This document shows, one piece after another, positions 4,572 to 52,162 of a DNA stretch of 64,000 nucleotides; the first letter of the stretch is position 1, and each line of letters starts with the position of its first letter. Source of the DNA: Candidatus Hydrothermarchaeum profundi (lineage in GTDB: Archaea; Hydrothermarchaeota; Hydrothermarchaeia; Hydrothermarchaeales; Hydrothermarchaeaceae); contig MTMF02000008.1 of NCBI GenBank assembly GCA_002011125.2, positions 71,019 to 135,018 on the forward strand. Reading direction: 5' to 3'. Made by a program: the position numbers and the translations under genes. The notes under the pieces were generated by a model. It was not told where the DNA came from and searched no databases. It saw nothing but the letters and a program-made list of their open reading frames with translations.

Positions 4572-5075
4572 ATGTTCGTTGGTGAGTATACTCCTATACC
4601 GCGAGCAGCCGCAATTGAGATGTTAAAGGAATCAGGGATCAAGGAGGGGGATACACTCTATATGCTGAGCTGTGGAGATGGGGATCTGCTAATAATGGCG
4701 GCAAGAAGATTTGGAGTAAGATGTGTTGGTATTGAACGTAAAAAGGTCTTAACTGACGATGCATTTGAGAAGGTGAAAAAGAGCGGGTTGGAGGATAGAA
4801 TCACAATACTCAACGATAACTTTCATTTTCCGAGGTTCTGGTCCCATATTGACGATAGAGAAGAAAAACCTTATGCCTTAAGGAATGCTGATGTTGTAAT
4901 CTATTACCTAACCCTTCAAGTCCAGGAATTGCTTAGAGATAAATTGGTAAAAGAACTTAGGAAAGGTGCTAGAGTGGCATCCTATGCATTTAAACTTATG
5001 GGATGGGAACCGGTTAAGACAAAAGTTGTGGAAGGCGTTCCATTCTATATTTTTGAGAAAGGAAAAAGCTTCTAG
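4572..5075 (+). CDS. aKMT-like methyltransferase paralogue with altered SAM motif I, copy 2
   Basis: 167 residues, clearly paralogous to the protein at 3526-4020 along its whole length (EYTPIPRAAAIEML, DRITILNDNF, VIYYLTLQVQELLRDKL, YIFEKGKSF). Motif I has drifted: the usual LYDLGSG reads LYMLSCGDGDLL here, losing the Asp and the first Gly. SAM binding may be weakened or lost, and the protein may be a regulatory or inactive paralogue. The gene overlaps the converging hemY end by 4 bases. The start is an ATG with no clear ribosome site. Confidence 0.7.
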   Translation: MFVGEYTPIPRAAAIEMLKESGIKEGDTLYMLSCGDGDLLIMAARRFGVRCVGIERKKVLTDDAFEKVKKSGLEDRITILNDNFHFPRFWSHIDDREEKPYALRNADVVIYYLTLQVQELLRDKLVKELRKGARVASYAFKLMGWEPVKTKVVEGVPFYIFEKGKSF

Positions 5076-6475
5076 CTCAGGTAACCTACTACTTTCTGTG
5101 AGGTTAGGTACGCATCTGCAGTACAATAATTTATACCGACCCCTCTAAATGCATTACCGGTCATAAATAATCCTGGATGTTTATTGAGTCGTTTTTCTAT
5201 TATTTCAAGACGTTTTTTATGTCCTAAGGTGTATTGAGGTATCCCCTTTTCATGTCTAAAAACTTTCGCAAATATAGGCTCCGCATCTATCCCCATTATT
5301 TCCATAAGCTCTCCCTTAGCGATGTTAATCAGCTGGTCCTTAGAGAGAAGTGCTAACTCAGGCTGCATTGCTCCCCCGATCATAATCCTAAATAAATATT
5401 TACCCTCTGGCGCTCTGCCTGGAAATATACTACTGGTCCATAGACATCCTATTATTTTTCGTTTCTCGTTTCTTGCTACCAAAAATCCAAAACCATCTAG
5501 AGGGTGATTAAGCTCTTTACGGTTATATCCAAGGGCAACTACTGATATAGGCACATAGGGTATCTCTAGCAGCTTCTGGGATATCTCTGGGTCTAATTCT
5601 TTTATCATTTTGCTTGTTGTGTAAGCGGGTGTTGCTGTTATGATTATATCTGCCTCCAAGGCATCATTTCCCTCTAGCTCGGCGATATATTTGGGTTTTT
5701 TATCATCTATTCTACTGATCTTTTCAACCCTTTTGCCTTTGATTATATCTCCCTCAATTTTCTCTGCAAGAGTATCTATAAGGGTCTGTATTCCACCTTT
5801 GAAGGAAGTTAGTCTGCCCCCTGGACCAGCGGTAGCTTTCATTTTTATTCCCGTTTTCTTTGCCTGTTTCATACGCTTTATCATCCCTCTTATAAGGCTG
5901 CCATTTCCCTCCTTTTCCACTTCTAGAAGGAGAGGGAAACAGCTTTCCATACTTAACTTTTCTGCGTCACCTCCGAAGACACCGCTAACCATTGGAGCTA
6001 TTAGTTTGTTAACAGCTTCTTGTCCCATATGCCTTCTTGCAAACTCCGCTATAGTTTCCTCTTCTCCCTCGGGTTTAGGTTTGGTGAATATCTCCATCGC
6101 AACCCTCATTTTACCTTTCAGCGAGAGGAGGTCAGATTTCAAAAAAGCTATTGGTGACTCTGGGAGTTGTTTTAATTTTCCATCAGAGTAGATGAACCTT
6201 TTTCTCGCAACATCGTTACTAGGTTGTAGCAGGTCGTTTATTCCTAAGGCATCTACTAGTTTTAGTGTGCTGGGCTTATTATCAAGAAATCCGTTGGCTC
6301 CTACCTCAATGGTATACCCCTTTTCCCGCATCGTTTGAACTTTACCTCCTAATTTTTCAGATGCTTCTATTAGGGTTATGTCTACGTCGATACCTTTGTC
6401 TCTGGCTTTTTCTTGTATATTGAAGGCGGTCGATAATCCAGAGATTCCCCCGCCAACTACAACTACTCTGTTCAT
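5072..6475 (-). CDS. hemY: Protoporphyrinogen/coproporphyrinogen III oxidase, HemY/CgoX type
   Basis: An FAD-dependent oxidase of 467 residues. The N-terminal dinucleotide-binding motif is VVVGGGISGLSTAF, followed by ASEKLGGKVQTMREKG. The middle contains the family signature region APMVSGVFGGDAEKLSM. The C-terminus has the second FAD-contacting segment MTGNAFRGVGINYC. It removes six electrons from a porphyrinogen to make a porphyrin. Its neighbours hemE and hemH and the absence of any hemG or hemJ favour coproporphyrinogen as substrate (CgoX role), but the sequence alone does not decide this. Last gene of the ahbD-hemE-hemH-hemY operon, 38 bases after hemH. Confidence 0.9.
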   Translation of the reverse strand: MNRVVVVGGGISGLSTAFNIQEKARDKGIDVDITLIEASEKLGGKVQTMREKGYTIEVGANGFLDNKPSTLKLVDALGINDLLQPSNDVARKRFIYSDGKLKQLPESPIAFLKSDLLSLKGKMRVAMEIFTKPKPEGEEETIAEFARRHMGQEAVNKLIAPMVSGVFGGDAEKLSMESCFPLLLEVEKEGNGSLIRGMIKRMKQAKKTGIKMKATAGPGGRLTSFKGGIQTLIDTLAEKIEGDIIKGKRVEKISRIDDKKPKYIAELEGNDALEADIIITATPAYTTSKMIKELDPEISQKLLEIPYVPISVVALGYNRKELNHPLDGFGFLVARNEKRKIIGCLWTSSIFPGRAPEGKYLFRIMIGGAMQPELALLSKDQLINIAKGELMEIMGIDAEPIFAKVFRHEKGIPQYTLGHKKRLEIIEKRLNKHPGLFMTGNAFRGVGINYCTADAYLTSQKVVGYLS

Positions 6476-6513
6476 AAAAATCCATTAGAATTTAAATGAG
6501 AGCAAATATAAAA

Positions 6514-7455
6514 TCATTGTGTATTTGCCTTTACAATTTCTGTTAGTGCAAGAACGAATTCAGGATTATCGTTAAGTGACTGTGTTCTCCTGAGAGTCAC
6601 TCCTAACTTCTGTGCATACTTTTTAAGCTTGATATCTATATCATAGAGGGTTTCCAAATGGTCGGAAACAAAACTGATAGGCACTACTAAAATATTTTTA
6701 ATATCCTTCTCGCTTAATGTTTTAATAACGTCCTCTGTTTTAGGTCCTAGCCATTTAATTGGTCCAGATTGACTTTGGAATCCAAGACTCCATTTAATAC
6801 CGTCTAGTTGTCTTTCTACTCCTTTTATCGTAGCCATTATCTCTGATAAGTAAGGATCTCCTTCTTCTATTACTTTCTGAGGTAGGGAATGAGCGCTAAA
6901 TAAAACATGAACTTCTTTTTCTTCAAATTCTGAGAGTCCTCTTCTAATACTGTTTGCCAAGGCGGTTAGATAACCCGGATGATCATACCACCTGTCTATA
7001 ACTTTTACGCTAATTTTTGGATTTATTTTCTCAATTGCAATATTCAGTTTTTTAACGCATGTGCCAGTTGTAGTTCTAGAATACTGTGGGAAAAGAGGTA
7101 AAGCCAGAATATCTTTTATTCCTGTTTTAACTACGCTTTCAACGGCTTCTTCTATAGTAGGATGCCAATAGCGCATTCCAACAAATACTTCAAAATCTCT
7201 CCCAAGCTCATTTTTAAGAGCCGCAGCTTGCCTCAAGGTTATATCTACAATCGGGCTTTTACCGCCTATTTTCTCGTACCTTTCCCTAACCTTTCTCGCC
7301 CGAAACTTAGATATGAGCTTCGCTGTAGGTTTCTGGAAAGGAAGTCTTATGATATCCCTGTCCGAGAAAAGATTATAAAGGAAAGGTTCAATGGAGGATA
7401 TCGAGTCGGGACCTCCTAAATTCATCATGATTATTGCTTTTTTCTCGGTAGTCAT
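6514..7455 (-). CDS. hemH: Ferrochelatase (HemH/CpfC family)
   Basis: Inserts Fe2+ into a porphyrin. 313 residues, using the ATG at 7455 that overlaps the hemE stop (ATGA); a GTG four codons earlier is the alternative. It shows MMNLGGPDS at the N-terminus, the HSLPQKV segment with the metal-site His, FQSQSGPIKWLGP, and ISFVSDHLETLYDID with the catalytic Glu. With hemE and hemY in one operon it most likely acts on coproporphyrin III (CpfC role). Ferrochelatase is uncommon in archaea, which usually use siroheme-based heme synthesis, so transfer from bacteria is likely. Confidence 0.92.
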   Translation of the reverse strand: MTTEKKAIIMMNLGGPDSISSIEPFLYNLFSDRDIIRLPFQKPTAKLISKFRARKVRERYEKIGGKSPIVDITLRQAAALKNELGRDFEVFVGMRYWHPTIEEAVESVVKTGIKDILALPLFPQYSRTTTGTCVKKLNIAIEKINPKISVKVIDRWYDHPGYLTALANSIRRGLSEFEEKEVHVLFSAHSLPQKVIEEGDPYLSEIMATIKGVERQLDGIKWSLGFQSQSGPIKWLGPKTEDVIKTLSEKDIKNILVVPISFVSDHLETLYDIDIKLKKYAQKLGVTLRRTQSLNDNPEFVLALTEIVKANTQ

Positions 7456-8480
7456 CGTATGCTCCACTTTTTTACGAATTTCACCATGGAAATTACATTT
7501 TCTACAGGTGTTTGTGGTAAGATACCATGCCCTAAGTTAAATATGTGTCCAGGCCTATTTTCAGCTCTATACAAGATATCCCTAACTCTCTCCTTTATCA
7601 AAGGTTTAGTGGTTAATAATATCGCTGGATCAAGATTTCCTTGTATTCCCACATTATATCCTATTCTTTTCCAAGCCTCGTCTAGGTTAATCCTCCAGTC
7701 AATACCTATGACATCTCCCCCAGATTCTCTCATAAGCTCTAAGAGGGTTGAAGCTCCTGTAGCAAAATATATTATAGGGACCTTGTTTTTAAGAGACTTT
7801 ATTACCTTCTTCGTAAATGGCAGTACATATCGCTCATAATCTGTAGGGGAGAGGCATCCTACCCATGAATCGAATAGTTGCAAGGCATGTACTCCAGAGT
7901 CGATCTGATAATTCAAATATTTAACAATAGTATCTGATAGTTTATTCATTAATTTATTGTAGGTGTTTGTGTCTTTCCACATCATAACTTTCAGATTTTC
8001 ATAGTTTCTGCTTCCTTCACCTTCAACCATATAACTCGCTAACGTGAAAGGAGCTCCAGAAAACCCTATTAGTGGAACTCTTTCTTCTAAATGCTTCAAA
8101 GCGAGTTTTATGCTCTCCTCTACGAATGGGATATCTTCTTCTGGTTCTGGAATCTTCAATGATTCTACCTCCCTAGAGTTCCTTACAGGGTTCAGGATGA
8201 CAGGGCCAATTGTTTCTTGGAACTCTATTTTAATTCCCATAGCTTCGATAGGGATTAGTATATCTGAAAACAAAATTGCAGCATCTACTTGCAGCTTATC
8301 AACCGGCTGGATAGTTATCTTTGCGGCAACCTTAGGATTTTTACACATTTCGAGAAAAGAATATTTTTCTCTTATCTCTTGATACTCTTCCATATATCTG
8401 CCCGCTTGACGCATAAGCCAAACAGGGGTTCTTGGGGTTTTCTCAAGGTTACATGCTTTTAGAAAAAGGTCATTTTCCAA
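7452..8480 (-). CDS. hemE: Uroporphyrinogen III decarboxylase
   Basis: Decarboxylates uroporphyrinogen III to coproporphyrinogen III. The 342 residues begin with the family-typical RTPVWLMRQAGRYMEEYQ segment (Arg residues that bind substrate carboxylates) and contain FSDILIPIEAMG with the catalytic Asp, GFSGAPFTLASYMVEG, and a C-terminal FNLGHGILPQTP, which carries the conserved His. Second gene of the heme operon, 74 bases after the radical SAM gene and overlapping hemH by 4 bases. Confidence 0.95.
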   Translation of the reverse strand: MENDLFLKACNLEKTPRTPVWLMRQAGRYMEEYQEIREKYSFLEMCKNPKVAAKITIQPVDKLQVDAAILFSDILIPIEAMGIKIEFQETIGPVILNPVRNSREVESLKIPEPEEDIPFVEESIKLALKHLEERVPLIGFSGAPFTLASYMVEGEGSRNYENLKVMMWKDTNTYNKLMNKLSDTIVKYLNYQIDSGVHALQLFDSWVGCLSPTDYERYVLPFTKKVIKSLKNKVPIIYFATGASTLLELMRESGGDVIGIDWRINLDEAWKRIGYNVGIQGNLDPAILLTTKPLIKERVRDILYRAENRPGHIFNLGHGILPQTPVENVISMVKFVKKWSIR

Positions 8481-8554
8481 AGTTTTCTCTCCTTTTATTT
8501 CAATATGACTCTAAATTCTTTGATATACCTGAGAGATATTTTCTATTTAAGTTT

Positions 8555-9622
8555 CTACAAGTTTTTTTCTTTTACTATCCTAATAGGGTTATATGTGCAA
8601 TACGGCTCTTCTGCGAGATAATCTCCATGAACAGCATAGGCTCTTGCTCGGCAACCCCCACAGACCATTAAATATTCGCACTCCCCGCATTTTCCTTTAT
8701 ATATTTTAAAATTTCTAAGGTTTCTAAGTAATTGAGAATTCTCCCATATCTCTTTAAAAGATTGTTCTTTTATGTTTCCTGCATTTTCCGGGAAGTAAGA
8801 GCAAGGGTGAACATTACCTTTGTGATCAATGAAGGCTATTAATTGTCCTGCAACACAACCTTTATTGCCTCCCGTAGAGAAGCTTAGATTCCTACGTTTA
8901 AACTCTCTGCCCTCTTTTTTTGCTAGTTGCCTAAAGACCCTATAGTACTGTGGAGCACAAGTTGGCCTGACTAATATTTCATCCTCCTCTTTTTCCATAG
9001 TATAGTGCCACTTCAAAATTTCTTCATAATCTTCTCTGGAAATTAGTTCCTCCATAATCTCTTTTCCTCTGCCAGTGGGAACTATCATAAACATGTACCA
9101 AGCGGTTGCGCCAAGTTTCTTTGCAAGCTTATAAACATTGGGTATATCTGCTTGGTTTCTCTTAGTAAATGAGGAATTTATTATAAAGGGTATACTATGT
9201 TTCTTGAGTAATCTTGCAGCATTGATCGTACCTTTGAATGCTCCTTTTTGCCTCCTAAAATTATCATGAATTTCTTCCTTAGAACCGTCGAGGCTGAGTG
9301 CAACGATTTTAATACCTGAGGCCTTCATTTTTTCGCATATTTCATCGGTCACTAAGGTGCCATTAGTTGCAAGGCACATCCTTAGACCTTTACTCGTACC
9401 ATAGCTAGCTATGTCGAATACATCTTCCCTTAAAAGAGGCTCACCGCCTGATAGCACTATGACCGGGTCATAGTATTTAGAGATATCATCGAGAAGTCTT
9501 TTTGCTTCTGTGGTAGAAGGTCCATTTTCTTCGCTCAAACTAGCTGATGCTCTACAATGAATGCAATTAAGATTACATCGGCCAGTTAGCTCCCACGCTA
9601 TCCATTTGGGTTCAAAATCCAT
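8555..9622 (-). CDS. ahbD: Radical SAM/SPASM protein, AhbD-like heme synthase
   Basis: 355 residues. The radical SAM cluster motif is CNLNCIHC (Cys16, 20, 23) in the context [13 protein letters not shown], close to AhbD of archaea and sulfate reducers. SGGEPLL and ATNGTLV follow. The C-terminal SPASM region has several Cys ([34 protein letters not shown]) for auxiliary clusters. AhbD decarboxylates two propionates of iron-coproporphyrin III to give heme b. Being first in an operon with hemE, hemH and hemY supports a terminal heme role. Other SPASM maturases look similar, so the family call is good and the exact reaction is inferred. Confidence 0.75.
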
Positions 9623-9632: not shown

Positions 9633-9651
9633 TTTCCTTAGAGTAAGGAAA
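9633..9651. promoter_or_regulatory. Inverted repeat, candidate operator of heme operon / tyrA divergent promoter
   Basis: A perfect 8-bp inverted repeat, TTTCCTTA-GAG-TAAGGAAA, lies 11 bases upstream of the ahbD ATG in the 76-bp gap between divergent ahbD and tyrA. A TATA-like stretch (about 9667-9677) sits where transcription of the minus strand would start in or near this repeat, so a bound dimeric repressor could block it. No regulator is identified. Confidence 0.45.
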
Positions 9652-12954: not shown

Positions 12955-14043
12955 CTAATATTCTTTAATAATCTTGTAGAGAGTCGTTCTTTGAGCGGCA
13001 GGCCTGCCTATATCTTTAATCAATCGGACTATTTTTTCTGGTGGTAAATAGTTACTTTTAACGCCTGCAGCTCTTACCACGTTTTCCTCTATCATTGTCC
13101 CTCCAAAGTCGTTCGCACCATAAAACAAAGCTATCTGTGCTACTTTTGTACCTTGAGTAACCCAGGATGCCTGTATATTTCTAATATTATTAAGAATTAA
13201 TCTAGATATAGCCACAATTTTCAAATAGTCTACTCCGGTAGAACTCATGTAGGTCTCTCTTGCTAGCTTTGTATTTTGAGGTTGGAAACTCCAGGGTATA
13301 AACGCAGTAAATCCTCCTGTTTTGTCCTGGATTTCTCTAATTCTAATAAGATGTTTTATCCTACTTTTATAAGATTCACCAAGACCGTACACCATAGTAG
13401 CGGTCGTAGGCAAACCTAACGAATGAGCGGTAACCATCACTTTTTTCCACTCTTCCCAGCTAATCTTGTTAGGGCTTACCTTCTTCCTAATTTCATCATC
13501 AAGTATCTCTGCTCCCCCGCCAGGTAAACTCTGTAAGCCTGCCTCTATAAGCCTCTCCAAGGTTTCTCTAAGACTGATACCAGAAGTTTTGGATATAAAG
13601 TGTATCTCGCTGGGCGAGAAAAAGTGTCTTTGCACGTGGGGAAATCTCTCTTGAGTTGCCTTCAGAATATCTTCGTAATATTCTATCGGCAGATCAGGGT
13701 TTAATCCTCCCTGTAATAATATTTGAGTAGCACCTAAGTCGACAGCTTTTTTTATTTTTTCCATGATCTCTTCGAGAGTTAGAGTATATGCTTCTCTTGA
13801 TTTTTTAGATCTGTAAAAAGCGCAGAACTTACATCCGCTTACACATACATTAGTATAATTTATGTTGCTGTCTATAACAAAGGTAACGAGGTCTCCGCAA
13901 ACCATTTTCCTCAAGGTATCAGCGACGGTACCTAAACTTACTAGATCATTATTTTTGAATAAAGCTAAACCCTCTTCTATGTCTAGGGGTTCTCTTGCCA
14001 ATGCTTTTTCATATATCGCCGTTAGCTCAGTTTCAATTAGCAT
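12955..14043 (-). CDS. mqnC: Cyclic dehypoxanthine futalosine synthase (radical SAM)
   Basis: 362 residues. The radical SAM motif is CVSGCKFC (Cys67, 71, 74) after INYTNV, as in MqnC/CofH relatives. Other family features are LLQGGLNPDLP, SLPGGGAEIL, and the C-terminal FYGANDFGGTMIEENVVRAAG. It cyclises dehypoxanthine futalosine in the futalosine menaquinone pathway. The start overlaps the mqnA stop by 7 bases, so mqnE-mqnA-mqnC form one transcription unit. Similarity to mqnE next door shows ancient paralogy; neighbour context supports assigning this one as MqnC. Confidence 0.9.
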   Translation of the reverse strand: MLIETELTAIYEKALAREPLDIEEGLALFKNNDLVSLGTVADTLRKMVCGDLVTFVIDSNINYTNVCVSGCKFCAFYRSKKSREAYTLTLEEIMEKIKKAVDLGATQILLQGGLNPDLPIEYYEDILKATQERFPHVQRHFFSPSEIHFISKTSGISLRETLERLIEAGLQSLPGGGAEILDDEIRKKVSPNKISWEEWKKVMVTAHSLGLPTTATMVYGLGESYKSRIKHLIRIREIQDKTGGFTAFIPWSFQPQNTKLARETYMSSTGVDYLKIVAISRLILNNIRNIQASWVTQGTKVAQIALFYGANDFGGTMIEENVVRAAGVKSNYLPPEKIVRLIKDIGRPAAQRTTLYKIIKEY

Positions 14044-14870
14044 TTCGCAACACCGAAAAAATCTAGCTCCGGTTTTTCAGTCAATATACCGTATTTAAAA
14101 GCTTTTTCAAAATAGACTTCAAGTCCCCTGATACTGCGTGCATCCAGATCGTAATCTATTAGTTCAAGATGTTTTTTCATAAAACTCTGACTTACTCCAA
14201 GCTCCTCTGCCAGCCGTGCTGATATGTAGTCCATCTCTTTAAAAGCTTTATCTCTAGATTTCACAAGATAATTATAGAATCTCTCTATCTCATGAGGCTT
14301 CTGGATAGCGGATTGTTTATTTATTACCCACAGAGCATACACCATCTTCTCTCCAGTTAGTTTCATCCATTCTTCCCCTAAATCACAGATATACCTTCTG
14401 CCAGCGTAGTTGGCTTTAAGAGCATGGTCTCCAATGAGGAGAGCAGCATCAGCTTTTTGAAGCATTGAGTCAAGATCTGGTTCCGGGTGATTAAAAAACT
14501 CCACATTTATATCATGTAATTGTAATATGATCCTCAGTAGTGCAGCAGAAGTAGCTGTTGTACCAGGTATAGCTATTGTTTTGCTCTCTATTTCTGAAAG
14601 TTCATCAAAATCATCTGAAAATAATATAATGCTCATGGTTTTACCTAACGCGCTTATGCTGAAATCTGGTAGAAGACAGAATTCTCTGAAATATTGCCCG
14701 TAGATTATTGAAGAGACAGGAGCAATATCTATGCTCCCCTCTCGAAGCATTACCCCTAGTTCCGGAGGGTGCCCCCTAACATAACTCAGATCATCTGCTG
14801 TGATCATCCCGTTGGTAAGTGGATAGTAGACGAAATCTGTGTTTTTGAAATAAGTTTGACCTATTATCAT
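14037..14870 (-). CDS. mqnA: Chorismate dehydratase
   Basis: 277 residues of the periplasmic-binding-protein-like MqnA/MqnD fold. The N-terminus carries YYPLTNGM and GHPPELGVMLREGSIDIAPVSS (split), and IAIPGTTATSAALLRIIL binds substrate. It dehydrates chorismate to 3-enolpyruvyl-benzoate, the first step of the futalosine route. It lies between mqnE (4-bp gap) and mqnC (7-bp overlap). Confidence 0.9.
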   Translation of the reverse strand: MIIGQTYFKNTDFVYYPLTNGMITADDLSYVRGHPPELGVMLREGSIDIAPVSSIIYGQYFREFCLLPDFSISALGKTMSIILFSDDFDELSEIESKTIAIPGTTATSAALLRIILQLHDINVEFFNHPEPDLDSMLQKADAALLIGDHALKANYAGRRYICDLGEEWMKLTGEKMVYALWVINKQSAIQKPHEIERFYNYLVKSRDKAFKEMDYISARLAEELGVSQSFMKKHLELIDYDLDARSIRGLEVYFEKAFKYGILTEKPELDFFGVAKC

Positions 14871-14874
14871 CTAT

Positions 14875-16020
14875 TTACTCCCTATATACTCTCAAAATCT
14901 CATGGACCGAGGTGCGTAAGGCGGGGATTCTGCCAGCATTCCTTATAAGGGCAAGCAATTTTTTTTCTGTCATCATTCCTCCAGCAATACCTCCAGCAGC
15001 TTTAGTTATACGTTCCTCTACAACAGTTCCTTCGAGGTCATTTGCTCCATAATGAAGGGATATCTGAGCTAGTTTCTCTCCAAGCATAACCCAATACGCT
15101 TTGATATTAGTTATGTAGTCATTAAGCATTATTCTTGAAATAGCGATAGTTCTAAGGATATCAAAACCGCTTGGACCCTCCTCTGATACAAGTCCATCCT
15201 TTAATAGTGGGGTATTCTTTGGGTGAAACGGAAGAGGAATGAAAGCTTGAAATCCATTGGTTTCTTTCTGGGCTTTTCTCAGCCACAGTAAATGGTCCAC
15301 ACGATCCTCTTTGGACTCTAAATGTCCAAATAACATTGTGGCGTTACTTTTTATTCCAAGTAAATGGGCTTCTTTCATTATTTTTATCCAACCCTCAGCA
15401 GAAACTTTGTTTGGGCATATCTTCTTGCGCAATTCCTCATTTAGTATCTCGGCGCCTCCTCCAGGCATACTCCCCAGGCCTGCATCTTTAAGCCGTTGCA
15501 GAACCTCCTTTGTGCTTAACCCCGAGATTTCTGAAAAATAGTTGATCTCCGCCGCTGTAAAAGCCTGTATATGAACTTCAGGAAACTTCTTTTTTATCAT
15601 TTTAACCATTTCCTCGTAGAATTCAAATGGCAAATCTGGGTGGTGACTCCCAACTATATGGAAGTCCTTTATACCTTTCTTCACAGAGCCTTCAACTTTC
15701 TTTAGGATCTCATCTATAGACATAGTATATGATCCAGCTTGGCCTTTTTCTCTGTAGTAGGCACAAAAAGAGCACTTAGAAATACAGACATTAGTATAGT
15801 TTATATGCCGATTCAAAGCGAAAGTTACAATATCCCCTACAGTTCTTTTGCGTAGTTCATCTGCTAGTGCTCCCAAAGCGAGTAAATTATTAGTGTTAAA
15901 AAGTGTAATACCATCGCTTCTATCAAGCTCCTCTCCTGCTAAGGATTTGTCAATAACATCCTTTAAATCGCTGTCATTAATATATTTGTATAATAACAAT
16001 TCAGTACCCCTTCTTACCAC
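14875..16020 (-). CDS. mqnE: Aminofutalosine synthase (radical SAM)
   Basis: 381 residues with CISKCSFC (Cys79, 83, 86) after INYTNV, then FHIVGSHHPDLPFEFY, SMPGGGAEIL, and near the C-terminus HYGANDLEGTVVEERI. It joins the chorismate dehydratase product to SAM to make 6-amino-6-deoxyfutalosine. The HHPDLP motif distinguishes it from the mqnC paralogue. The start is a GTG at 16020; a downstream TTG is possible. First gene of the mqnE-mqnA-mqnC unit. Confidence 0.9.
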   Translation of the reverse strand: MVRRGTELLLYKYINDSDLKDVIDKSLAGEELDRSDGITLFNTNNLLALGALADELRKRTVGDIVTFALNRHINYTNVCISKCSFCAYYREKGQAGSYTMSIDEILKKVEGSVKKGIKDFHIVGSHHPDLPFEFYEEMVKMIKKKFPEVHIQAFTAAEINYFSEISGLSTKEVLQRLKDAGLGSMPGGGAEILNEELRKKICPNKVSAEGWIKIMKEAHLLGIKSNATMLFGHLESKEDRVDHLLWLRKAQKETNGFQAFIPLPFHPKNTPLLKDGLVSEEGPSGFDILRTIAISRIMLNDYITNIKAYWVMLGEKLAQISLHYGANDLEGTVVEERITKAAGGIAGGMMTEKKLLALIRNAGRIPALRTSVHEILRVYRE

Positions 16021-16225
16021 TTCGCAGTAGTGGTATTTATTATTTATGGAGCCGGAACAGTTGTAAAATTATAGATATTTATCTTCTATATCACGGTCTT
16101 CGATTCTTTTTTCCAAAGTTGAAGCCTAAAAAGGTTTTATATTTTCTAAAAGAAACTAAATTCTTGGCAAAACAGTTATATTACTTTAGGAGGTAATCAT
16201 CTAGGTTTGTATAGTGCAGTATCGA

Positions 16226-16366
16226 TCACAAAGTGATTCTCTTTTCTGCATTTCCTTTAGAGTCTCTCGGAATCATTCCGAGTCGTAGTTCTTTCATCAG
16301 ATTATCCCAGCGTCTTTTAATTTCAGATTCCGCATAAGTTGGTGTAGGGATATTTTTTGCTGTCAT
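16226..16366 (-). CDS. 46-residue hypothetical protein
   Basis: An ATG frame of 46 codons in the 470-bp gap upstream of mqnE. The product is polar and basic (EIKRRWDNLMKELRLGMIP), predicted helical with no hydrophobic segment. The ribosome site is weak. It could be a small real protein or the remnant of a larger gene; nothing else in the gap is recognisable. Confidence 0.4.
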   Translation of the reverse strand: MTAKNIPTPTYAESEIKRRWDNLMKELRLGMIPRDSKGNAEKRITL

Positions 16367-16488
16367 AAAACCCTATTTCTAAAGGATAAGTGCAAGTATT
16401 TTTGGTTTACATAAATGGTTGAAAAGGTATACGCTTATGTCTTAAGATTTAGAAAGCTTTTTTATTTCTAGCCTTGTAATCGAGAAAG

Positions 16489-16848
16489 ATGGAGGATAAT
16501 TGTGAAAGATTTAAGCTAATATTTTTAGGTAACATTTTGCTATTTGGACTAGTACTTTTCAATGAAATTAGTATAATCACCGGGAAAATAGAGTTAATGC
16601 GCTTTTTTATGGTGCTGGTAGTTCTCTTATTAGCCTTTAAAAATAGAAGCTACAGGCTCATTAATTCTAAAATAAAATGTTCGCGTTCGTTTTTTGAAAT
16701 TTCTTTTAAAATCGCTATAGTGCTTTTAGGGGTAAGTCTGCTCATAGAGCCTTTTGGTTTTCCTGTTGTTAGCAAGTACTCTCTTTTTATCCTAGCAATT
16801 ATAGGAGCACAGTCTTACCTTATGGCAAAAAAGCTGGATAAGCATTGA
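16489..16848 (+). CDS. Small membrane protein, unknown
   Basis: 119 residues with four hydrophobic segments (about 10-25, 33-50, 70-87, 95-112) separated by short basic loops. No family is recognised. It lies between the mqnE promoter region and mqnD, 53 bases before mqnD, so co-transcription is possible but no menaquinone role is shown. Confidence 0.6.
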   Translation: MEDNCERFKLIFLGNILLFGLVLFNEISIITGKIELMRFFMVLVVLLLAFKNRSYRLINSKIKCSRSFFEISFKIAIVLLGVSLLIEPFGFPVVSKYSLFILAIIGAQSYLMAKKLDKH

Positions 16849-16901
16849 TTTCTAAAACTATCCCAAAGAATTATAATTAAGAATCGATATTCATCAAAAA
16901 T

Positions 16902-17726
16902 ATGTCTAGGATACTAATAGCTCACAGTCCAGATTCAGACGATGCATTCATGTTTTATGCGCTGATAACAGGTAAAGTCGGATGCGAACAGCTGGAATTC
17001 GAGCAGATACTCGCGGATATTGAAACACTAAATCAAAAAGCATTAAAAGGCGAATATGAGGTAAGCGCAGTATCGATACATGCGTATCCTTACATAGCAG
17101 ATAAATATGTACTCATGAATAGTGGAGCAAGTATGGGGTATAACTACGGGCCAATTGTTGTCTCAAAAGAGCCTATGGAAAGTTTAAAAGGTAAAAAAGT
17201 AGCAGTTCCAGGAAAATTAACTTCCGCGTTTCTAGAATTAAAGCTATATGAAGAAGAATTTACTCCGATCTTTATAAACTTTGATAGGATTATAGACGCT
17301 GTGGATAATGAAAAGGTAGATGCGGGGCTCATAATTCATGAAGGTCAGTTAACGTATAGGAGTAAAAAACTCTACAAGGTTGTAGATCTAGGTGAGTGGT
17401 GGTACGAGGAAACTGGTTTACCTCTGCCTTTAGGGGGAAATGTAATCCGAAAGGATATAGGAAAAGAACTAATGGAGAAGATTGCCTTATGTGTAAAGAA
17501 AAGCATTTTGTATGCACAGTCTCATGAAGATGAGGCTTTAGAATATGCGATGAAATTCGGGAGAGGTCTCCGTAATCAAGAAGCAAAGAAGTTTGTAAGA
17601 ATGTATGTTAATGAGTTTACGGTTGATTACGGTGAGAAGGGCAGAGAGGCAGTGAGGCTTCTGTTGGAGAGGGGGTATGAAAGAGGTCTTATTCCTGTAA
17701 AAGTGGAACCGGAGTTTATTGGATAG
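16902..17726 (+). CDS. mqnD: 1,4-dihydroxy-6-naphthoate synthase
   Basis: 274 residues with the MqnD N-terminus (AHSPDSDDAFMFYAL), VSAVSIHAYPYIADKY, PGKLTSAFLELKLY and DAGLIIHEGQLTY, followed by GLPLPLGGNVIRKDI. It cleaves cyclic dehypoxanthine futalosine to 1,4-dihydroxy-6-naphthoate. It converges on the prenyltransferase gene. Family signature and pathway neighbours agree. Confidence 0.92.
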   Translation: MSRILIAHSPDSDDAFMFYALITGKVGCEQLEFEQILADIETLNQKALKGEYEVSAVSIHAYPYIADKYVLMNSGASMGYNYGPIVVSKEPMESLKGKKVAVPGKLTSAFLELKLYEEEFTPIFINFDRIIDAVDNEKVDAGLIIHEGQLTYRSKKLYKVVDLGEWWYEETGLPLPLGGNVIRKDIGKELMEKIALCVKKSILYAQSHEDEALEYAMKFGRGLRNQEAKKFVRMYVNEFTVDYGEKGREAVRLLLERGYERGLIPVKVEPEFIG

Positions 17727-17735
17727 TTTTCTGTT

Positions 17736-18587
17736 TTAAAGTAGAATATCCGCTCCTATGAATATCAAGAAACAGATTCCTACGACTGCATTAACATTGA
17801 AAAAAGCGATAGGGACTTTTTGCAGGTTAGTAGGGCTGATTATTAAATGTTCATAAACGAGGAGAATAGAAATAACTCCAATTCCTATCAGGAATATCGT
17901 TTGGAGATCTACAAAAAATCTCAATGAAATAAGGAAAAAAACGGTTAAGGCATGAAAAAGGGCGGATATTTTTAGTCCCTCTTTTATGCCAAACACCTTA
18001 GGTATCGATTTAAGTCCATATTGTTTATCGAACTCTAAGTCTTGGTAAGAGTAGATAACATCGAAGCCAGCCACCCAGAATGTAACAGCAAGACCTAATA
18101 ATATAGGGGCGAGGTCAAGTGAGGCCGTTACAGCTACCCAAGCGCCGACAGGCGCTATCCCAAGGGTCATGCCAAGCACTATATGTGAGAGGCATGTGTA
18201 TCTCTTGAGGTAAGGGTAAATCACGAAGAGGGCGACTGCGAAAGGATATAGTACAACACAGAGCCAATTGAGCATCAGAGCAGATATGAATAGCATAGTC
18301 AATGAGAATGCAATGTACATCTTAATTTCTTTCTCGCTGATTAATCCGGAAGGAAGTGCTCTGTTACGTGTCCTAGGGTTTTTTGCGTCAATTTCTCTAT
18401 CTATAAGTCTGTTTAACGACATAGCAGCGGTTCTTGCGCTTATCAAACCAATAGTTATCCAAAAAAGAACCCATACAGAGGGGATTCCTTTCGCTGCGAG
18501 TATCGCTCCAGAATATAGAAAAGGCATGCTGAAAACCGTATGCTCTATTTTTATATCCTTAAAAAATATTTCTAGCTTGCTGGGCAT
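17736..18587 (-). CDS. mqnP: UbiA-family prenyltransferase, probable menaquinone (MqnP) enzyme
   Basis: A polytopic membrane protein with about eight helices. It carries the first Asp-rich motif NRLIDREIDAKNPRT and the second motif YSYQDLEFDKQYG, both needed for Mg-diphosphate binding. It should attach an isoprenoid to 1,4-dihydroxy-6-naphthoate or its decarboxylated form. The ATG at 18587, preceded by GGTGGTAGG, gives the start MPSKLEIFF typical of the family; a longer upstream frame overlaps ubiD and is unlikely. It lies 17 bases after the UbiD-like gene. Confidence 0.88.
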   Translation of the reverse strand: MPSKLEIFFKDIKIEHTVFSMPFLYSGAILAAKGIPSVWVLFWITIGLISARTAAMSLNRLIDREIDAKNPRTRNRALPSGLISEKEIKMYIAFSLTMLFISALMLNWLCVVLYPFAVALFVIYPYLKRYTCLSHIVLGMTLGIAPVGAWVAVTASLDLAPILLGLAVTFWVAGFDVIYSYQDLEFDKQYGLKSIPKVFGIKEGLKISALFHALTVFFLISLRFFVDLQTIFLIGIGVISILLVYEHLIISPTNLQKVPIAFFNVNAVVGICFLIFIGADILL

Positions 18588-18604
18588 CCTACCACCAAAT
18601 AGGA

Positions 18605-20053
18605 TTAGATCCCATAGTCTTTCCACTTCTTATCTACTAGTTCCTTAATCTCGCTGGTCATCGTGATTACCTCTGGCCATTCTCTCTCAAATCCCTCTTC
18701 TTTCAGTTTTCTTGTTGCATCAATACCTATTTTAGAACCTAGGTTTGACAATGGAGTAGCATGGTCAAGACTGTCCATAGGAGTTCTCTCTATGATAGTA
18801 ATGTCTCTTGCTGGATCAATCCTTGTCGAAACTGCCCACAGGACTTCTGATAGGTTATGTATGTCAACATCGTGATCGACCACGACTATTACTTTCGTGA
18901 ACATCATCTGTCCCAATCCCCATAAAGCTAGCATCACTTTCTTGGCATGCCCCGGGTATCTTTTCTTTATAGATACTATGGCAAGATTATGAAACACACT
19001 CTCGATAGGGAGATTTATGTCAACGATTTCTGGGAACTGTGCTCGTAGGAGTGGCAGAAATATTCTTTCTACAGCCTTACCTAGGTAAGCATCTTCCATA
19101 GGGGGAACCCCTACAATCGTAGTTGGATAAACAGGATTTTCTTTATGGGTTATGCAGGTTATATGAAAAACCGGATAAAGATCTGCCAGAGAATAGTAGC
19201 CTGTATGGTCACCGAAAGGGCCTTCAGTTCTCCTTTCTTCAGGATCCACATACCCCTCAAGCACTATCTCCGCATTTGCTGGCACTTCAAGACCTATTGT
19301 TTTGCATTTAACTAGCTCAACGGGTTTCTTTCGTATGAAACCTGCGAAGACTAGTTCGTCAAAACCTTCAGGTAGAGGTGCAACTGCTGAGAATATAGTA
19401 GCAGGGTCCCCTCCTAACGCTACGGCTACCTCAAGTCGCTCATTGCTTTTTTCGGCAGTATTAAAATGTTTAGCTCCGTGTTTGTGTATCTGCCAATGCA
19501 TGCCTGTTGTTCTACTATCATAGACTTGCATTCGGTACATACCTACATTTCTTTCTCCTGTATCAGGGTCTTTAGTGAAAACTAAGGGAAGGGTGATATA
19601 CCTGCCCCCATCTTTTGGCCAGCATTTTATAATCGGAAACTCGTTGAGATCAGCTTCTTCTCCTATTTTCACGACTTGTTGGCATGGGGCTTTTTTAACT
19701 ATTTTTGGAGGATAAGAGAGTAATTCCTTCACTTTCGATATCCCTTTCATCTTTTCTATAAGTCCTGAGGGGACCTTTGGTCTCAGTAACTCAGACATTC
19801 TTATTCCAATTCCTTCAAGGTTATCTGTCTCTAAAGCTAACTTCATCCTTTCCATGGTACCAAAGAGATTGCCTACTACAGGTATATCACAGTCTTTGAC
19901 GTTCTCAAATAGAATGGCAGGTCCCTTTTGTTTCACAGTTCTGTCAAGTATCTCGGTTATTTCTAGGTCTCTGTCAACTTCAGTGTGAACTCTCTTAAGT
20001 TCTCCCTTCTCCTCAAGTACTTCAATAAAATTCTGAAGGTCCAAGTAAACCAT
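18605..20053 (-). CDS. ubiD: UbiD-family decarboxylase, probable menaquinone pathway (MqnL-like)
   Basis: 482 residues of the prenylated-FMN-dependent UbiD family. It contains the family landmarks GMYRMQVYD, MHWQIHKHGAKH, EGPFGDHTGYYS (with the catalytic Glu/Arg region) and the C-terminal IGIDATRK. In the futalosine route a UbiD-like enzyme removes the ring carboxylate. It is transcribed with the prenyltransferase. The prFMN-making UbiX partner is not in this window. Confidence 0.88.
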   Translation of the reverse strand: MVYLDLQNFIEVLEEKGELKRVHTEVDRDLEITEILDRTVKQKGPAILFENVKDCDIPVVGNLFGTMERMKLALETDNLEGIGIRMSELLRPKVPSGLIEKMKGISKVKELLSYPPKIVKKAPCQQVVKIGEEADLNEFPIIKCWPKDGGRYITLPLVFTKDPDTGERNVGMYRMQVYDSRTTGMHWQIHKHGAKHFNTAEKSNERLEVAVALGGDPATIFSAVAPLPEGFDELVFAGFIRKKPVELVKCKTIGLEVPANAEIVLEGYVDPEERRTEGPFGDHTGYYSLADLYPVFHITCITHKENPVYPTTIVGVPPMEDAYLGKAVERIFLPLLRAQFPEIVDINLPIESVFHNLAIVSIKKRYPGHAKKVMLALWGLGQMMFTKVIVVVDHDVDIHNLSEVLWAVSTRIDPARDITIIERTPMDSLDHATPLSNLGSKIGIDATRKLKEEGFEREWPEVITMTSEIKELVDKKWKDYGI

Positions 20054-20147
20054 TAGAACTCCATTTTATAATAGGGTATTATTAAAATTTCCCAATCACT
20101 AATCGATTTAATACAATACTTATCTATGAAAATTTTAAATATAGCTC

Positions 20148-20570
20148 ATGAAAGGGATTCAAATTGCGGCTAAAGTAACTGCTGGAATAAGTGCATTACT
20201 TGCAGTGACTATGACTTTGTATGTGGTATTGACGCCTGATTTTTATGTAACATACTCCGAAATAGTTGTAGAAACCTTGAATGGAGATTTAGATCGGGTT
20301 AGTAAAATTGGTACTTCTTCCTATCTTCAGGTAAATGGCTTATATGGGCTTATACCCCTTGCTATACCCATTATGCTTTCACTCTTTGGTTATTGGACGT
20401 TATTCTGGGTAACTAAATCCAGGTTGATTATAATCTGGACGATCGCGATTCTGCTACTTCTTTTTTCATTTTTGTTTATATTTTCGATAGGACTAGGCTA
20501 TGTTCCATCAGGTATTGCTATGATATTAGCAGCGATTTTTGAAACTTTTCATTTTTGTAAAGCAAGATAA
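20148..20570 (+). CDS. Small membrane protein, unknown
   Basis: 140 residues with an N-terminal hydrophobic helix (about 5-27), an extracytoplasmic-looking loop of about 40 residues, and three further helices (about 62-80, 88-108, 112-135). No motif suggests a function. It lies divergently from ubiD in the menaquinone region. Confidence 0.6.
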   Translation: MKGIQIAAKVTAGISALLAVTMTLYVVLTPDFYVTYSEIVVETLNGDLDRVSKIGTSSYLQVNGLYGLIPLAIPIMLSLFGYWTLFWVTKSRLIIIWTIAILLLLFSFLFIFSIGLGYVPSGIAMILAAIFETFHFCKAR

Positions 20571-20605
20571 AATGCTGTTTCTTTTTATAAAATAGATAAC
20601 ACTAC

Positions 20606-20716
20606 CTACTCTTTTTTCTTGTCTTCTTTATGGTGATATTTTAAAAAGTCTTGTAGTGAACAGAGGAGTCCGCATTTATCTGGATTTTTATCGTAATAGG
20701 GTTTTGCTTGCATCAT
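20606..20716 (-). CDS. 36-residue small protein
   Basis: A 36-codon frame starting with two ATGs in the gap before ubiE. It has one CGLLC pair and a charged C-terminus (HHKEDKKKE). The CxxxC could bind metal. Ribosome site is weak. Probable but unproven. Confidence 0.4.
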   Translation of the reverse strand: MMQAKPYYDKNPDKCGLLCSLQDFLKYHHKEDKKKE

Positions 20717-20788
20717 ATTACTAATTTAGAAAATTCACTATTAAAGGGATAACGGTAAAGTTATAAGTTATCTCTTCAATTTATTGGC

Positions 20789-21493
20789 ATGGAAGATAAA
20801 GCCGAATCCATCAGAAATATGTTCTCTTCTATTGCTCATCGTTATGACCTCCTGAATACTCTACTAAGCCTAAACCGAGATAAGTATTGGAGAAAATTTA
20901 CAGCTTCAAAAGCAGGTTTGAAGAAAGGAGGTTCTGCTATAGATTTTGCCACAGGAACAGGGGAGCTGGCAATTGAGCTTGCTAAGATAGTGGGAGAGGA
21001 AGGCAGAGTTGTTGGAGTGGATTTTAGCCAAAAGATGTTAGATATAGCAAAAATAAAGGTTGAGAAATCTGGATTAGAGAGAATTATAGAATTTTCTCAT
21101 CAAAGAGCTGAAAGTGTGCCATTCCCTGAGAATACCTTTGATTGTGCAACGATAGGATTTGCCTTGAGAAATGTAACTGATATCCCTACGGTATTAAAGG
21201 AAATGACCCGCGTGGTAAAAGTTGGAGGACGTGTTGTATTATTAGAATTCACGCAGCCTAGGAACCCTGTTGTGAGAAGGCTCTATTTTTTTTACTCCTT
21301 TAACATACTGCCTATGATTGGGGGCATAATTTCCGGCAGAAAAGACGCATATGAATACTTGCCTGAATCAATTCTAAAATTTCCTTCACCTGAAAAGCTT
21401 AGAGATATAATGATAGACGTAGGATTAAAAAATATCAAAATTTACATTCTTACGGGGGGTATAGTGGCAGTTCATGTGGGTGTTAAAGCTTAG
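20789..21493 (+). CDS. ubiE: Demethylmenaquinone (UbiE/MenG) methyltransferase
   Basis: 234 residues with the UbiE N-terminal signature (YDLLNTLLSLNRDKYWRK), SAM motif I AIDFATGTGELAIELA, and the C-terminal family segment EFTQPRNPVVRRLYFFY followed by DAYEYLPESI. It C-methylates demethylmenaquinone as the last step of menaquinone synthesis. Its location beside mqn genes supports this over ubiquinone, which archaea do not make. Confidence 0.93.
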   Translation: MEDKAESIRNMFSSIAHRYDLLNTLLSLNRDKYWRKFTASKAGLKKGGSAIDFATGTGELAIELAKIVGEEGRVVGVDFSQKMLDIAKIKVEKSGLERIIEFSHQRAESVPFPENTFDCATIGFALRNVTDIPTVLKEMTRVVKVGGRVVLLEFTQPRNPVVRRLYFFYSFNILPMIGGIISGRKDAYEYLPESILKFPSPEKLRDIMIDVGLKNIKIYILTGGIVAVHVGVKA

Positions 21494-40842: not shown

Positions 40843-41565
40843 TTAGAAATTGGGATAATGGTCACTTTTTCGTATCAACTTAGTTTGAACTGAGTCAAAT
40901 TGATTTTTTTTGGATTTATCATAAAGAATTCGAAATAACCTCTCATATGTTTTTTTTCCAACGCCATCCACATTCATTAAGAATCTAAATCTTCTAAAGG
41001 GTTGATTTTGCTTAATTTTGTATGCTATGTCCCGTCTAACCTTATACTTAGAAACTAATTCGTCAACTTCTAATAAATTCAAAGCTCTGACCATCTTTTT
41101 CTCGACTCCTCTTGGGAACTTTAGATCGTCTAAACATATGTAAACAGGGATATCAAATTTTGAGAGATATTTTTCCATGATTTCCTTCACATCATCCCAC
41201 TTTAGTCCCCCATGAGTAATTCCAAGTGGAGGAAACGCAATTGATTTAATGCCTAATTCCGTGTAATTTTCTAATAAATATTTTAAACCGGATTCAATCC
41301 ACTCAATCTTTGAAGGGTCTTTCCAATGAAACTTTGTTGGAAAATTTAAAATCCAAACATCAGGATATTTATATAGGAATGGTTTTCCCGTCTTTACTTT
41401 TTGCATTTTACATCGAGCCAAATAATCCTCAAACATTTCTGGATATCTCAACCGGTATTCAAGCGCTATACCAGCACCCATTACTCCAACACAATTAACA
41501 GTATTCACGATTGTCTGAACTTTTAAATTAAATACTGTATTATCGGAATATTTCGGATATGTCAT
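40843..41565 (-). CDS. darG: DarG-like macrodomain antitoxin
   Basis: 240 residues. The N-terminal macrodomain has IVNTVNCVGVMGAGIALEYR, NFPTKFHWKDPS, and IAFPPLGITHGGLKWDDV, the arrangement of DarG ADP-ribosyl-thymidine hydrolases (the usual GCGNGGL reads GITHGGL here). The C-terminal 80 residues carry a helix-hairpin-helix-like FLMNVDGVGKKTYERLFRIL and would bind DarT or DNA. DarG removes ADP-ribose from DNA and also binds the toxin directly. The start overlaps the darT stop (ATGA), so the pair is co-translated. Pairing plus motifs make the call firm. Confidence 0.88.
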   Translation of the reverse strand: MTYPKYSDNTVFNLKVQTIVNTVNCVGVMGAGIALEYRLRYPEMFEDYLARCKMQKVKTGKPFLYKYPDVWILNFPTKFHWKDPSKIEWIESGLKYLLENYTELGIKSIAFPPLGITHGGLKWDDVKEIMEKYLSKFDIPVYICLDDLKFPRGVEKKMVRALNLLEVDELVSKYKVRRDIAYKIKQNQPFRRFRFLMNVDGVGKKTYERLFRILYDKSKKNQFDSVQTKLIRKSDHYPNF

Positions 41566-42311
41566 TGTGTGTCCTCATAAAAATAAAAGCTCTTGTCTAT
41601 AACTATTGGAATTTCAAGCTCAATTTTTTGTTTTAAACTTACTTTCGCATTTTCATCATATAACACTATTTTCTGAATTCTATCAGGAGGAACTTTACTT
41701 GGTACAAGAACTTCAGCCTGTTTTTTTCTTTTTGATTCTCCATCATAGCATCTTACCTCTGGGGGAAATAATTCCCAAGAAATATCTTTTAATTTTCGAA
41801 GATCGCAAAAAAACCTCGTTTCCTTTGCTGCTGCATTACCATCAGAGATATAAACGCCGGGTAAAAGCAATATGGATCTATCTACACAGAGATAGCAGAT
41901 ATTTTTTTCAAATTCTTTTCTTTTATAGTGCATTGGAGTCTTTTTTGCGAAGTATAGACACACATAGTCATGTATAGGTCTCCCTCCAATATTTTTGTTC
42001 TCTCGGATATCTTGAACACTATCCTCTGCAATAGATTTATGAGGGATCCTATATGCTTCATTGTAACACAATATTCCTTTTTCTAAAATAGAGGGAACGT
42101 TTTCAATTGGGGTTAAGTAATATAATTCCAGTAAGAGATTTTTAAATTCTTCAGGAATATCATCATAATAGTAGTTGAAAATTGAGTCCGGTATACCTTT
42201 GATATCACCATCCTCATATTCTATGATACCTTCATCAGCCATTTCTTCAATAGTAGGATAAACCCGAAAAGGGATCTCTCGATATCGATATTTTAAGTAC
42301 AATTTTTTCAA
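41562..42311 (-). CDS. darT: DarT-like DNA thymidine ADP-ribosyltransferase toxin
   Basis: 249 residues from a TTG at 42311. The DarT (DUF4433) core begins near residue 65: ELYYLTPIENVPSILEKGIL (NAD-binding), YVCLYFAKKTPMHYKRK (the ADP-ribosylating turn region), AAAKETRFF, and QAEVLVPSKVPPDRI with the catalytic Glu. It would transfer ADP-ribose from NAD+ to thymidines of single-stranded DNA, halting replication; DarTG systems act in phage defence. The first 60 residues resemble a winged helix, and that domain continues upstream of this start (see 42312-42382). Confidence 0.85.
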   Translation of the reverse strand: MKKLYLKYRYREIPFRVYPTIEEMADEGIIEYEDGDIKGIPDSIFNYYYDDIPEEFKNLLLELYYLTPIENVPSILEKGILCYNEAYRIPHKSIAEDSVQDIRENKNIGGRPIHDYVCLYFAKKTPMHYKRKEFEKNICYLCVDRSILLLPGVYISDGNAAAKETRFFCDLRKLKDISWELFPPEVRCYDGESKRKKQAEVLVPSKVPPDRIQKIVLYDENAKVSLKQKIELEIPIVIDKSFYFYEDTQ

Positions 42312-43875: not shown

Positions 43876-44037
43876 ATGGAAAACAACAACGTTAGTATGA
43901 CCATAAGGCTTCCTAAACTACTTAAAGAAAACATGGAAGCCCTCGTAAGGGAGGGGAAATATCAAAGCAAGGGCGACCTAATACGTACAGCTGTTCGAAA
44001 AATAATTGAGCAAGAAAAGGAGGGGGAGGTGGCTTAG
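43876..44037 (+). CDS. 53-residue ribbon-helix-helix regulator
   Basis: ATG start with GGTGAT before it; another in-frame ATG lies 4 codons upstream. NVSMTIRLPKLLKENMEAL and SKGDLIRTAVRKIIEQ are the strand and two helices of a CopG-type protein. It ends one base before the integrase GTG, so it probably controls integrase expression. Confidence 0.75.
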   Translation: MENNNVSMTIRLPKLLKENMEALVREGKYQSKGDLIRTAVRKIIEQEKEGEVA

Positions 44038-44038
44038 G

Positions 44039-45319: not shown

Positions 45320-45334
45320 AGGGGGTTCTAGGTC

Positions 45335-45517
45335 TTGGTAAAGGTTAGGATCTCCTATAGCGCCAGGCTAGAGGGGGAAGGGGAGGCGACTACCACAGTT
45401 GACCTATATGCTGACATGCCGGTGGAGGATTATGCGTTGCACAGGCTGCTTTGCAAGTATGCCCTTGGGCTGCTTGAGCAGCAAGTAAAGATCTACAAGG
45501 GGGGTGGCAAAAGTTGA
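45335..45517 (+). CDS. 60-residue protein, unknown
   Basis: TTG start at 45335 with GGGGG upstream. The first half is predicted beta (KVRISYSARLEGEGEATTTV), the second helical. It overlaps the next start by 4 bases. Possibly an integrase accessory by position; no family recognised. Confidence 0.55.
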   Translation: MVKVRISYSARLEGEGEATTTVDLYADMPVEDYALHRLLCKYALGLLEQQVKIYKGGGKS

Positions 45518-45990: not shown

Positions 45991-45993
45991 AGC

Positions 45994-46146
45994 ATTTGCT
46001 GTATTAGATGCAGGCAATTCGATGTATGCCCCTATAGGCCCTTCTGTTGTTCAATCTGTGGTGACTACTATCCATGCAGGCATCACATGCAACGGCCAGC
46101 CTCGATAGAGCAGAAGATTATCCCAGAGTTCCTAGAGGAGGCGTGA
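45994..46146 (+). CDS. 50-codon Cys-rich frame with no standard start codon
   Basis: An open frame follows a strong GGAGGAGGG and reads CCIRCRQFDVCPYRPFCC, then SICGDYYPCRHH, with nine Cys; no in-frame ATG, GTG or TTG precedes the Cys block. ATT at 45994 is suitably placed after the ribosome site. It ends with TGA overlapping the next GTG (GTGA). Either ATT initiates, or the frame is entered from the preceding gene by frameshift. Confidence 0.4.
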   Translation: MCCIRCRQFDVCPYRPFCCSICGDYYPCRHHMQRPASIEQKIIPEFLEEA

Positions 46147-46334: not shown

Positions 46335-46349
46335 AGGGAGGAATCAAGA

Positions 46350-46896: not shown

Positions 46897-46900
46897 AGAG

Positions 46901-47554: not shown

Positions 47555-47556
47555 GG

Positions 47557-47941: not shown

Positions 47942-47947
47942 TATGTC

Positions 47948-52160: not shown

Positions 52161-52162
52161 AG

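What the first reader, a model, noticed from the sequence alone, without database searches (positions are those of the whole stretch)
5072..9622. Hybrid heme operon: coproporphyrin-type hemE-hemH-hemY with a radical SAM AhbD-like enzyme in place of HemQ
The four genes are in one minus-strand operon: AhbD-like, HemE, HemH, HemY. In Gram-positive bacteria HemE, CgoX (HemY) and CpfC (HemH) make Fe-coproporphyrin III, and the peroxide-dependent HemQ/ChdC finishes heme. AhbD of the siroheme route uses the same Fe-coproporphyrin III substrate. This operon would therefore join a bacterial-type upper branch to an O2-independent archaeal last step, without HemQ. Ferrochelatase and HemY are rare in archaea.
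Basis: partly seen in the sequence, partly recalled or inferred. Interest (0 to 1): 0.8.

Follow-up and report, generated by a model that had tools for sequence, protein, structure and literature searches.

The report
Imported bacterial heme operon in archaeon
An uncultured deep-sea archaeon has replaced its usual way of finishing heme with a four-gene operon of a kind common in oxygen-avoiding bacteria, and the order of the last steps in that operon is an open question that one enzyme assay could settle.

Summary
The genome (2.19 Mb, 97.7% complete) has no detectable HemQ, HemF, HemN, AhbA/B or AhbC. Two parts of the interpretation fail. First, the radical SAM enzyme is not an archaeal AhbD: it belongs to a separate clade, 61-74% identical to proteins in the same gene order in many Nitrospirota, Desulfuromonadales and other bacteria, and below the curated AhbD cut-off (441-464 bits; cut-off 500). 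Second, HemH and HemY are not coproporphyrin-type: HemH has the human-type active-site lip and lacks diagnostic CpfC residues; HemY lies outside the B. subtilis CgoX clade. Within the archaeal order (Ca. Hydrothermarchaeota) this set and the siroheme set (AhbA/B/C plus another AhbD) exclude each other, and HemQ is absent throughout, so whole late pathways were swapped. I slightly favour the radical SAM enzyme acting before iron insertion, as a HemN substitute, over the published idea that AhbD finishes coproheme.

The parts
8555..9622 (-). Radical SAM/SPASM enzyme, 'operon-type' clade of the AhbD family; CX3CX2C (C16, C20, C23) and full SPASM cysteines (C222, C256, C274, C312, C315, C321, C324, C342); Tyr176 where siroheme-type AhbDs have His
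7452..8480 (-). hemE, uroporphyrinogen III decarboxylase (TTG start with AAGGAGAG upstream)
6514..7467 (-). hemH, class II ferrochelatase with the PpfC-type lip; Leu17 proximal, His193 and Glu272 catalytic; probable ATG start at 7455 overlapping the hemE stop
5072..6475 (-). hemY, FAD-dependent porphyrinogen oxidase, not of the B. subtilis CgoX clade
9633..9651 (.). Perfect 8+3+8 inverted repeat TTTCCTTA-GAG-TAAGGAAA, 10 bp upstream of the radical SAM gene and between it and the divergent tyrA; possible operator (inference only, role untested)
   Evidence: sequence; only site in the window

Best explanation
Shown by sequence: this is a bacterial-type, HemQ-free late heme operon that stands in for the siroheme route in part of one archaeal order (Ca. 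Hydrothermarchaeota). Inferred mechanism: HemE makes coproporphyrinogen III. The operon-type radical SAM enzyme then turns the ring A and B propionates into vinyls at the iron-free stage, doing the job of the missing HemN/HemF. HemY oxidises the product to protoporphyrin IX, probably passing electrons to a non-oxygen acceptor such as menaquinone. The lip-bearing HemH inserts iron last. That the radical SAM enzyme does the decarboxylations is likely (about 0.9, as no other candidate was found); that it acts before iron insertion is only slightly favoured.
For: HemH: 235 bits to human PpfC against 142 and 131 to B. subtilis and Listeria CpfC. It is split from B. subtilis CpfC at SH-aLRT 99. The segment from the proximal residue to the conserved Ser is 54 residues, as in human (54), against 41 in B. 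subtilis. The lip is reported to close over the vinyl rings, and its absence in CpfC to be what admits coproporphyrin (PMC9133952). CpfC residues that bind p4 (T14), p7 (R29) and p2 (Y124), and the proximal Tyr, are Gly, Phe, Cys and Leu here; human has Gly, Phe, Ser, Met. Aquifex (G077), with a true HemN (785 bits), has a 47%-identical HemH with the same lip and no operon-type enzyme, whereas the 30 other bacterial genomes all have the operon-type enzyme and none of those tested for HemN passes its cut-off. HemF and HemQ are absent from all 30 genomes tested. The enzyme clade is distinct: stem 100/100, scores 441-464 below the AhbD cut-off, 13 fixed differences including His176 to Tyr. HemY lies outside the CgoX clade.
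Against: M. barkeri AhbD, the nearest characterised enzyme, hardly converts iron-free or zinc coproporphyrin III; the iron is thought to carry the electron (PMC11306076). All auxiliary-cluster cysteines of that enzyme are kept here. Arg63 matches the CpfC p6-binding Arg and differs from human Gln, though this site varies widely. The lip rule rests on Gram-positive against human enzymes, and I found no report of the substrate of any ferrochelatase from these HemN-less bacteria. Reviews assign AhbD to coproheme in such pathways.
Confidence: 0.48

Rival explanations
1. Coproporphyrin route ending in AhbD: HemE, then HemY makes coproporphyrin III, HemH makes coproheme, and the operon-type radical SAM enzyme makes heme b.
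For: Nearest characterised homologue acts on Fe-coproporphyrin III and needs the iron (PMC11306076); cysteine set identical (PMC10452713); no HemQ, HemN or HemF; reviews state that AhbD can be the last enzyme of the coproporphyrin route. G044 pairs hemE-hemH-hemY with a canonical AhbD and lacks AhbA/B/C.
Against: HemH has the PpfC lip and lacks the p2- and p7-binding residues and T14 of CpfC; HemY is not CgoX-type; the operon-type clade is not the clade of the siroheme-type AhbDs. In G044, HemY is CgoX-type and the HemH lip is shortened, so it differs from the window in the expected direction.
Confidence: 0.4
2. No fixed order: HemY and HemH are generalists and the radical SAM enzyme works on more than one coproporphyrin form.
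For: Ferrochelatases and HemY enzymes accept non-physiological porphyrins in vitro (PMC10427985, PMC9794026); HemH here has mixed features such as Arg63.
Against: No positive evidence; the gene set is tightly linked and conserved.
Confidence: 0.08
3. The operon is a misbinned bacterial contig in the archaeal genome.
For: Nearest HemH sequences outside the order are bacterial.
Against: It sits inside a longer contig with archaeal-type neighbours (e.g. prot_lys_mtase_Arch family methyltransferases); the set recurs in at least 12 genomes of the order, as one group for the radical SAM enzyme (89/92) and for HemY (96/95); operon GC 0.388 against 0.41 for the window.
Confidence: 0.02

Closest known systems
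AhbD heme synthase of the siroheme route (Methanosarcina barkeri, Desulfovibrio vulgaris)
   Same: Radical SAM plus SPASM; same radical SAM and auxiliary-cluster cysteines; removes two propionate carboxyls as vinyls (function inferred here)
   Different: 43-51% identity to the siroheme-type AhbDs used here; separate clade; below TIGR04545 cut-off; His176 replaced by Tyr; partner genes hemE/hemH/hemY instead of ahbA/B/C
Coproporphyrin-dependent pathway of Gram-positive bacteria (HemE, CgoX, CpfC, ChdC/HemQ)
   Same: HemE, a HemY-family oxidase and a HemH-family chelatase; no HemN or HemF
   Different: No HemQ; HemH has the lip and lacks CpfC residues; HemY not CgoX-type
Anaerobic protoporphyrin-dependent pathway (HemE, HemN, HemG/HemY/HemJ, HemH), e.g. 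Aquifex
   Same: HemE; HemH with PpfC lip; HemY not of the CgoX clade; oxygen-independent decarboxylation
   Different: No HemN; an AhbD-family enzyme in its place
ahbD-hemE-hemH(-hemY) operons of Nitrospirota, Desulfuromonadales and others
   Same: Same gene order, 61-74% identical radical SAM enzyme, same HemH type
   Different: Host is bacterial; hemY often elsewhere in the genome

Membership tests
AhbD heme b synthase (TIGR04545 equivalog) | Radical SAM CX3CX2C and SPASM cysteines | tested here: met
   C16, C20, C23; C222, C256, C274, C312, C315, C321, C324, C342; pattern as in PMC10452713
AhbD heme b synthase (TIGR04545 equivalog) | Score over curated cut-off (500 bits) | tested here: not met
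   442 bits; other operon-type 441-464; siroheme-type and G044 519-567
AhbD heme b synthase (TIGR04545 equivalog) | Falls in the clade of siroheme-pathway AhbDs | tested here: not met
   Separate clade, 100/100 stem; no Methanosarcina or Desulfovibrio sequence was in the tree
AhbD heme b synthase (TIGR04545 equivalog) | Converts Fe-coproporphyrin III to heme b | not testable with these tools
   needs an assay
Coproporphyrin-dependent pathway | CpfC-type HemH: no lip, Tyr/Phe proximal, T14, R29, Y124 | tested here: not met
   lip present; Leu, Gly, Phe, Cys
Coproporphyrin-dependent pathway | HemY in the CgoX clade | tested here: not met
   only G044 joins B. subtilis CgoX (100/99); other deep branches of that tree are unresolved
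Coproporphyrin-dependent pathway | HemQ/ChdC present | tested here: not met
   0 of 20 in the order, 0 of 30 in the wider set
Coproporphyrin-dependent pathway | No HemN and no HemF | tested here: met
Protoporphyrin-dependent pathway | PpfC-type HemH | tested here: met
Protoporphyrin-dependent pathway | HemN or HemF present | tested here: not met
Siroheme-dependent heme route | AhbA/AhbB and AhbC present | tested here: not met
   PF17805 only 16 bits, in an Lrp-like protein; AhbC-like proteins at most 198 bits outside the operon, 213 in it, against 650

The most novel reading that the evidence does not exclude
The operon-type radical SAM enzyme is an unrecognised third kind of coproporphyrinogen III to protoporphyrinogen IX enzyme, beside HemF and HemN, used by Nitrospirota, Desulfuromonadales and other HemN-less bacteria and passed as an operon to Hydrothermarchaeota. 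Heme in these organisms would then be made through protoporphyrin IX, not through coproheme.
Probability: 0.45. Interest if true: 0.75.

Novelty: new variant of a known kind. Interest (0 to 1): 0.55.

Why it matters
Heme synthesis is usually drawn as three routes. Many anaerobic or microaerobic bacteria, Nitrospira and Geobacter relatives among them, have none of HemN, HemF and HemQ in the genomes tested here, and AhbD is assigned to such pathways by analogy. The ferrochelatase sequence argues for a different order of steps than that analogy gives. Two purified proteins would decide it, for an important group of bacteria. The archaeal order also shows a whole late pathway being swapped for another with the same product, which bears on how the three routes evolved.

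Tried and rejected
HemN_C hit in the own genome (21.7 bits): lies in a 341-aa protein next to a speD-like gene with no HemN-like sequence; I judged it by reading to be a branched-polyamine synthase-like protein, not HemN. PF17805 hit in the own genome: Lrp-type regulator, not AhbA. The two other AhbD-like proteins of the genome (L002, TIGR04053 family; L003, nearest NirJ2) score far below the AhbC cut-off. Using archaeal origin of the radical SAM gene as evidence for a hybrid: rejected by the tree. Plasmid search for more canonical AhbDs returned mostly TIGR04053-like proteins. Dailey 2015 and 2017 are not in the library; their views are taken from later papers.
Full report
OBSERVATION. hemE, hemH and hemY pass their curated family cut-offs; the radical SAM protein scores 442 bits to TIGR04545 (AhbD), under the cut-off of 500. 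The hemH ATG overlaps the hemE stop as ATGA, consistent with translational coupling. The operon is divergent from tyrA, with a perfect 8+3+8 inverted repeat at 9633-9651 in the 76-bp gap; its role is unknown.

ORGANISM. G000 is a 2,186,281-base, 19-contig genome, 97.65% complete. Contig size and match position identify one order-mate, G010, with Archaeon BMS3Abin16, which PMC6759336 places in Candidatus Hydrothermarchaeota. I therefore take the window's order to be in that group.

WHAT IS MISSING. In the own genome there is no HemQ, no HemF, no HemN (best TIGR00538 score 28.8 bits against 325), no AhbA/AhbB (the only hit is an Lrp-type regulator) and no AhbC.

DISTRIBUTION IN THE ORDER. In 20 genomes, HemE/HemH/HemY on one side and AhbA/AhbB/AhbC on the other were not seen together. 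HemE and/or HemY with a 68-74% identical radical SAM enzyme: G000, G002, G009-G018. G006 has HemE, HemH and HemY but its radical SAM gene was not found (89% complete); G016 gave no HemY hit. Siroheme genes: G001 (same family as the window's genome), G004, G005, G008; G003 has AhbA and an AhbD; the class-mates G020-G022 also have siroheme genes. G007 and G019 are 62% complete and not informative. The AhbDs of siroheme-type genomes are 43-51% identical to the window's. HemQ occurs in none of the 20. So upstream genes and the radical SAM enzyme change together. Incomplete bins weaken single absences but not the pattern.

BACTERIAL RELATIVES. In 37 of the 80 loci the order ahbD-hemE-hemH is kept on one strand, and in 11 hemY follows. 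The radical SAM proteins are 61-74% identical to the window's. Among 30 genomes (8 archaeal, 22 bacterial) HemF and HemQ are absent from all, and HemN passes its cut-off only in Aquifex G077. All 30 non-Aquifex bacterial genomes in the last search have an operon-type enzyme; the two Aquifex genomes do not.

TREES. Radical SAM: operon-type (46 rows, bacteria plus archaeal order) against siroheme-type plus G044 (7 rows), 100/100, with a long stem; the archaeal order is one group (89/92) among bacteria whose internal order is unresolved. The tree alone does not give the direction of transfer; breadth in bacteria and siroheme genes in the class-mates make bacteria-to-archaea the likely one. HemY: archaeal order one group (96/95), beside Nitrospirota; G044 joins B. 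subtilis CgoX (100/99). HemH: window on the human side, B. subtilis CpfC and Thermoplasma-like sequences on the other (99), but several long branches and no single archaeal group; this quick tree should be read only for that main split.

ORDER OF STEPS. PMC9133952 states that a 12-residue lip closes over the vinyl rings in human ferrochelatase and that its absence lets CpfC bind coproporphyrin. The window's HemH has the human length in this segment (54 residues; B. subtilis 41; bacteria in the set 54-58; G044 48). PMC9794026 lists the Listeria residues that bind the propionates: T14, Y46 and S53 (p4), Y124 (p2), R45 (p6), R29 (p7). Y46 and S53 are kept in human too, so say nothing; T14, R29, Y124 and the proximal Tyr are Gly, Phe, Cys and Leu in the window. 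By these rules HemH should take protoporphyrin IX, and the vinyls must then be made before it acts. Against this, M. barkeri AhbD needs iron in its substrate, and the operon-type enzyme keeps all its cluster cysteines. It has 13 fixed differences from the siroheme type, among them Tyr176 in 46 of 46 where the siroheme type has His in 7 of 7. Whether residue 176 touches the substrate is not known. I put the protoporphyrin order at about 0.48 and the coproheme order at about 0.40.

ELECTRONS. HemY usually uses oxygen, but the title of PMC6620371 reports S. aureus CgoX as required for anaerobic heme synthesis too. Menaquinone genes of the futalosine type begin 3.3 kb away, so menaquinone is a plausible acceptor; this is inference.

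WHAT IS KNOWN. That AhbD can serve in a coproporphyrin route is stated in PMC7242693, PMC10548856 and PMC12670364. A 2024 automatic survey reported a complete coproporphyrin module in one Ca. Hydrothermarchaeota genome (PMC11459464). Thermoplasmatales hemE/hemH without the rest was noted in 2010 (PMC3004389). I found no text on the operon-type clade, its bacterial distribution or the lip in its HemH partners, within the open-access library only.

LIMITS. No assay, no wide HemH tree, only seven siroheme-type AhbDs, no sequence of a characterised AhbD in the tree, and upstream genes hemA, hemL, hemB, hemC and hemD not checked.

Noticed in passing
   Followed up: partly
window 12955-21493: Menaquinone genes of the futalosine type (MqnC, two VitK2_biosynth proteins, an MqnE-like radical SAM protein, and by reading UbiA-, UbiD- and UbiE-like proteins) 3.3 kb from the heme operon.
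   Followed up: partly
window 40843-42311: Macro-domain gene overlapping a DarT gene: a DarTG-type toxin-antitoxin pair.
   Followed up: partly
window ~44006-63000: Phage-integrase-family gene followed by many ORFs, several without Pfam matches; GC 0.453 from 50 kb on against 0.41 for the window: probably an integrated virus or other mobile element.
   Followed up: partly
L127 (G027) and L126 (G042): Other archaea carry HemH of the B. subtilis CpfC type without lip (41-residue segment; G027 166 bits to B. subtilis against 84 to human); in L126 an AhbD-like radical SAM gene lies next to hemH.
   Followed up: partly
L083 (G007) 7774-8815: Operon-type radical SAM gene that matches in separate frames, so apparently broken by frameshifts, in a 62% complete genome; assembly error or decay.
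   Followed up: no
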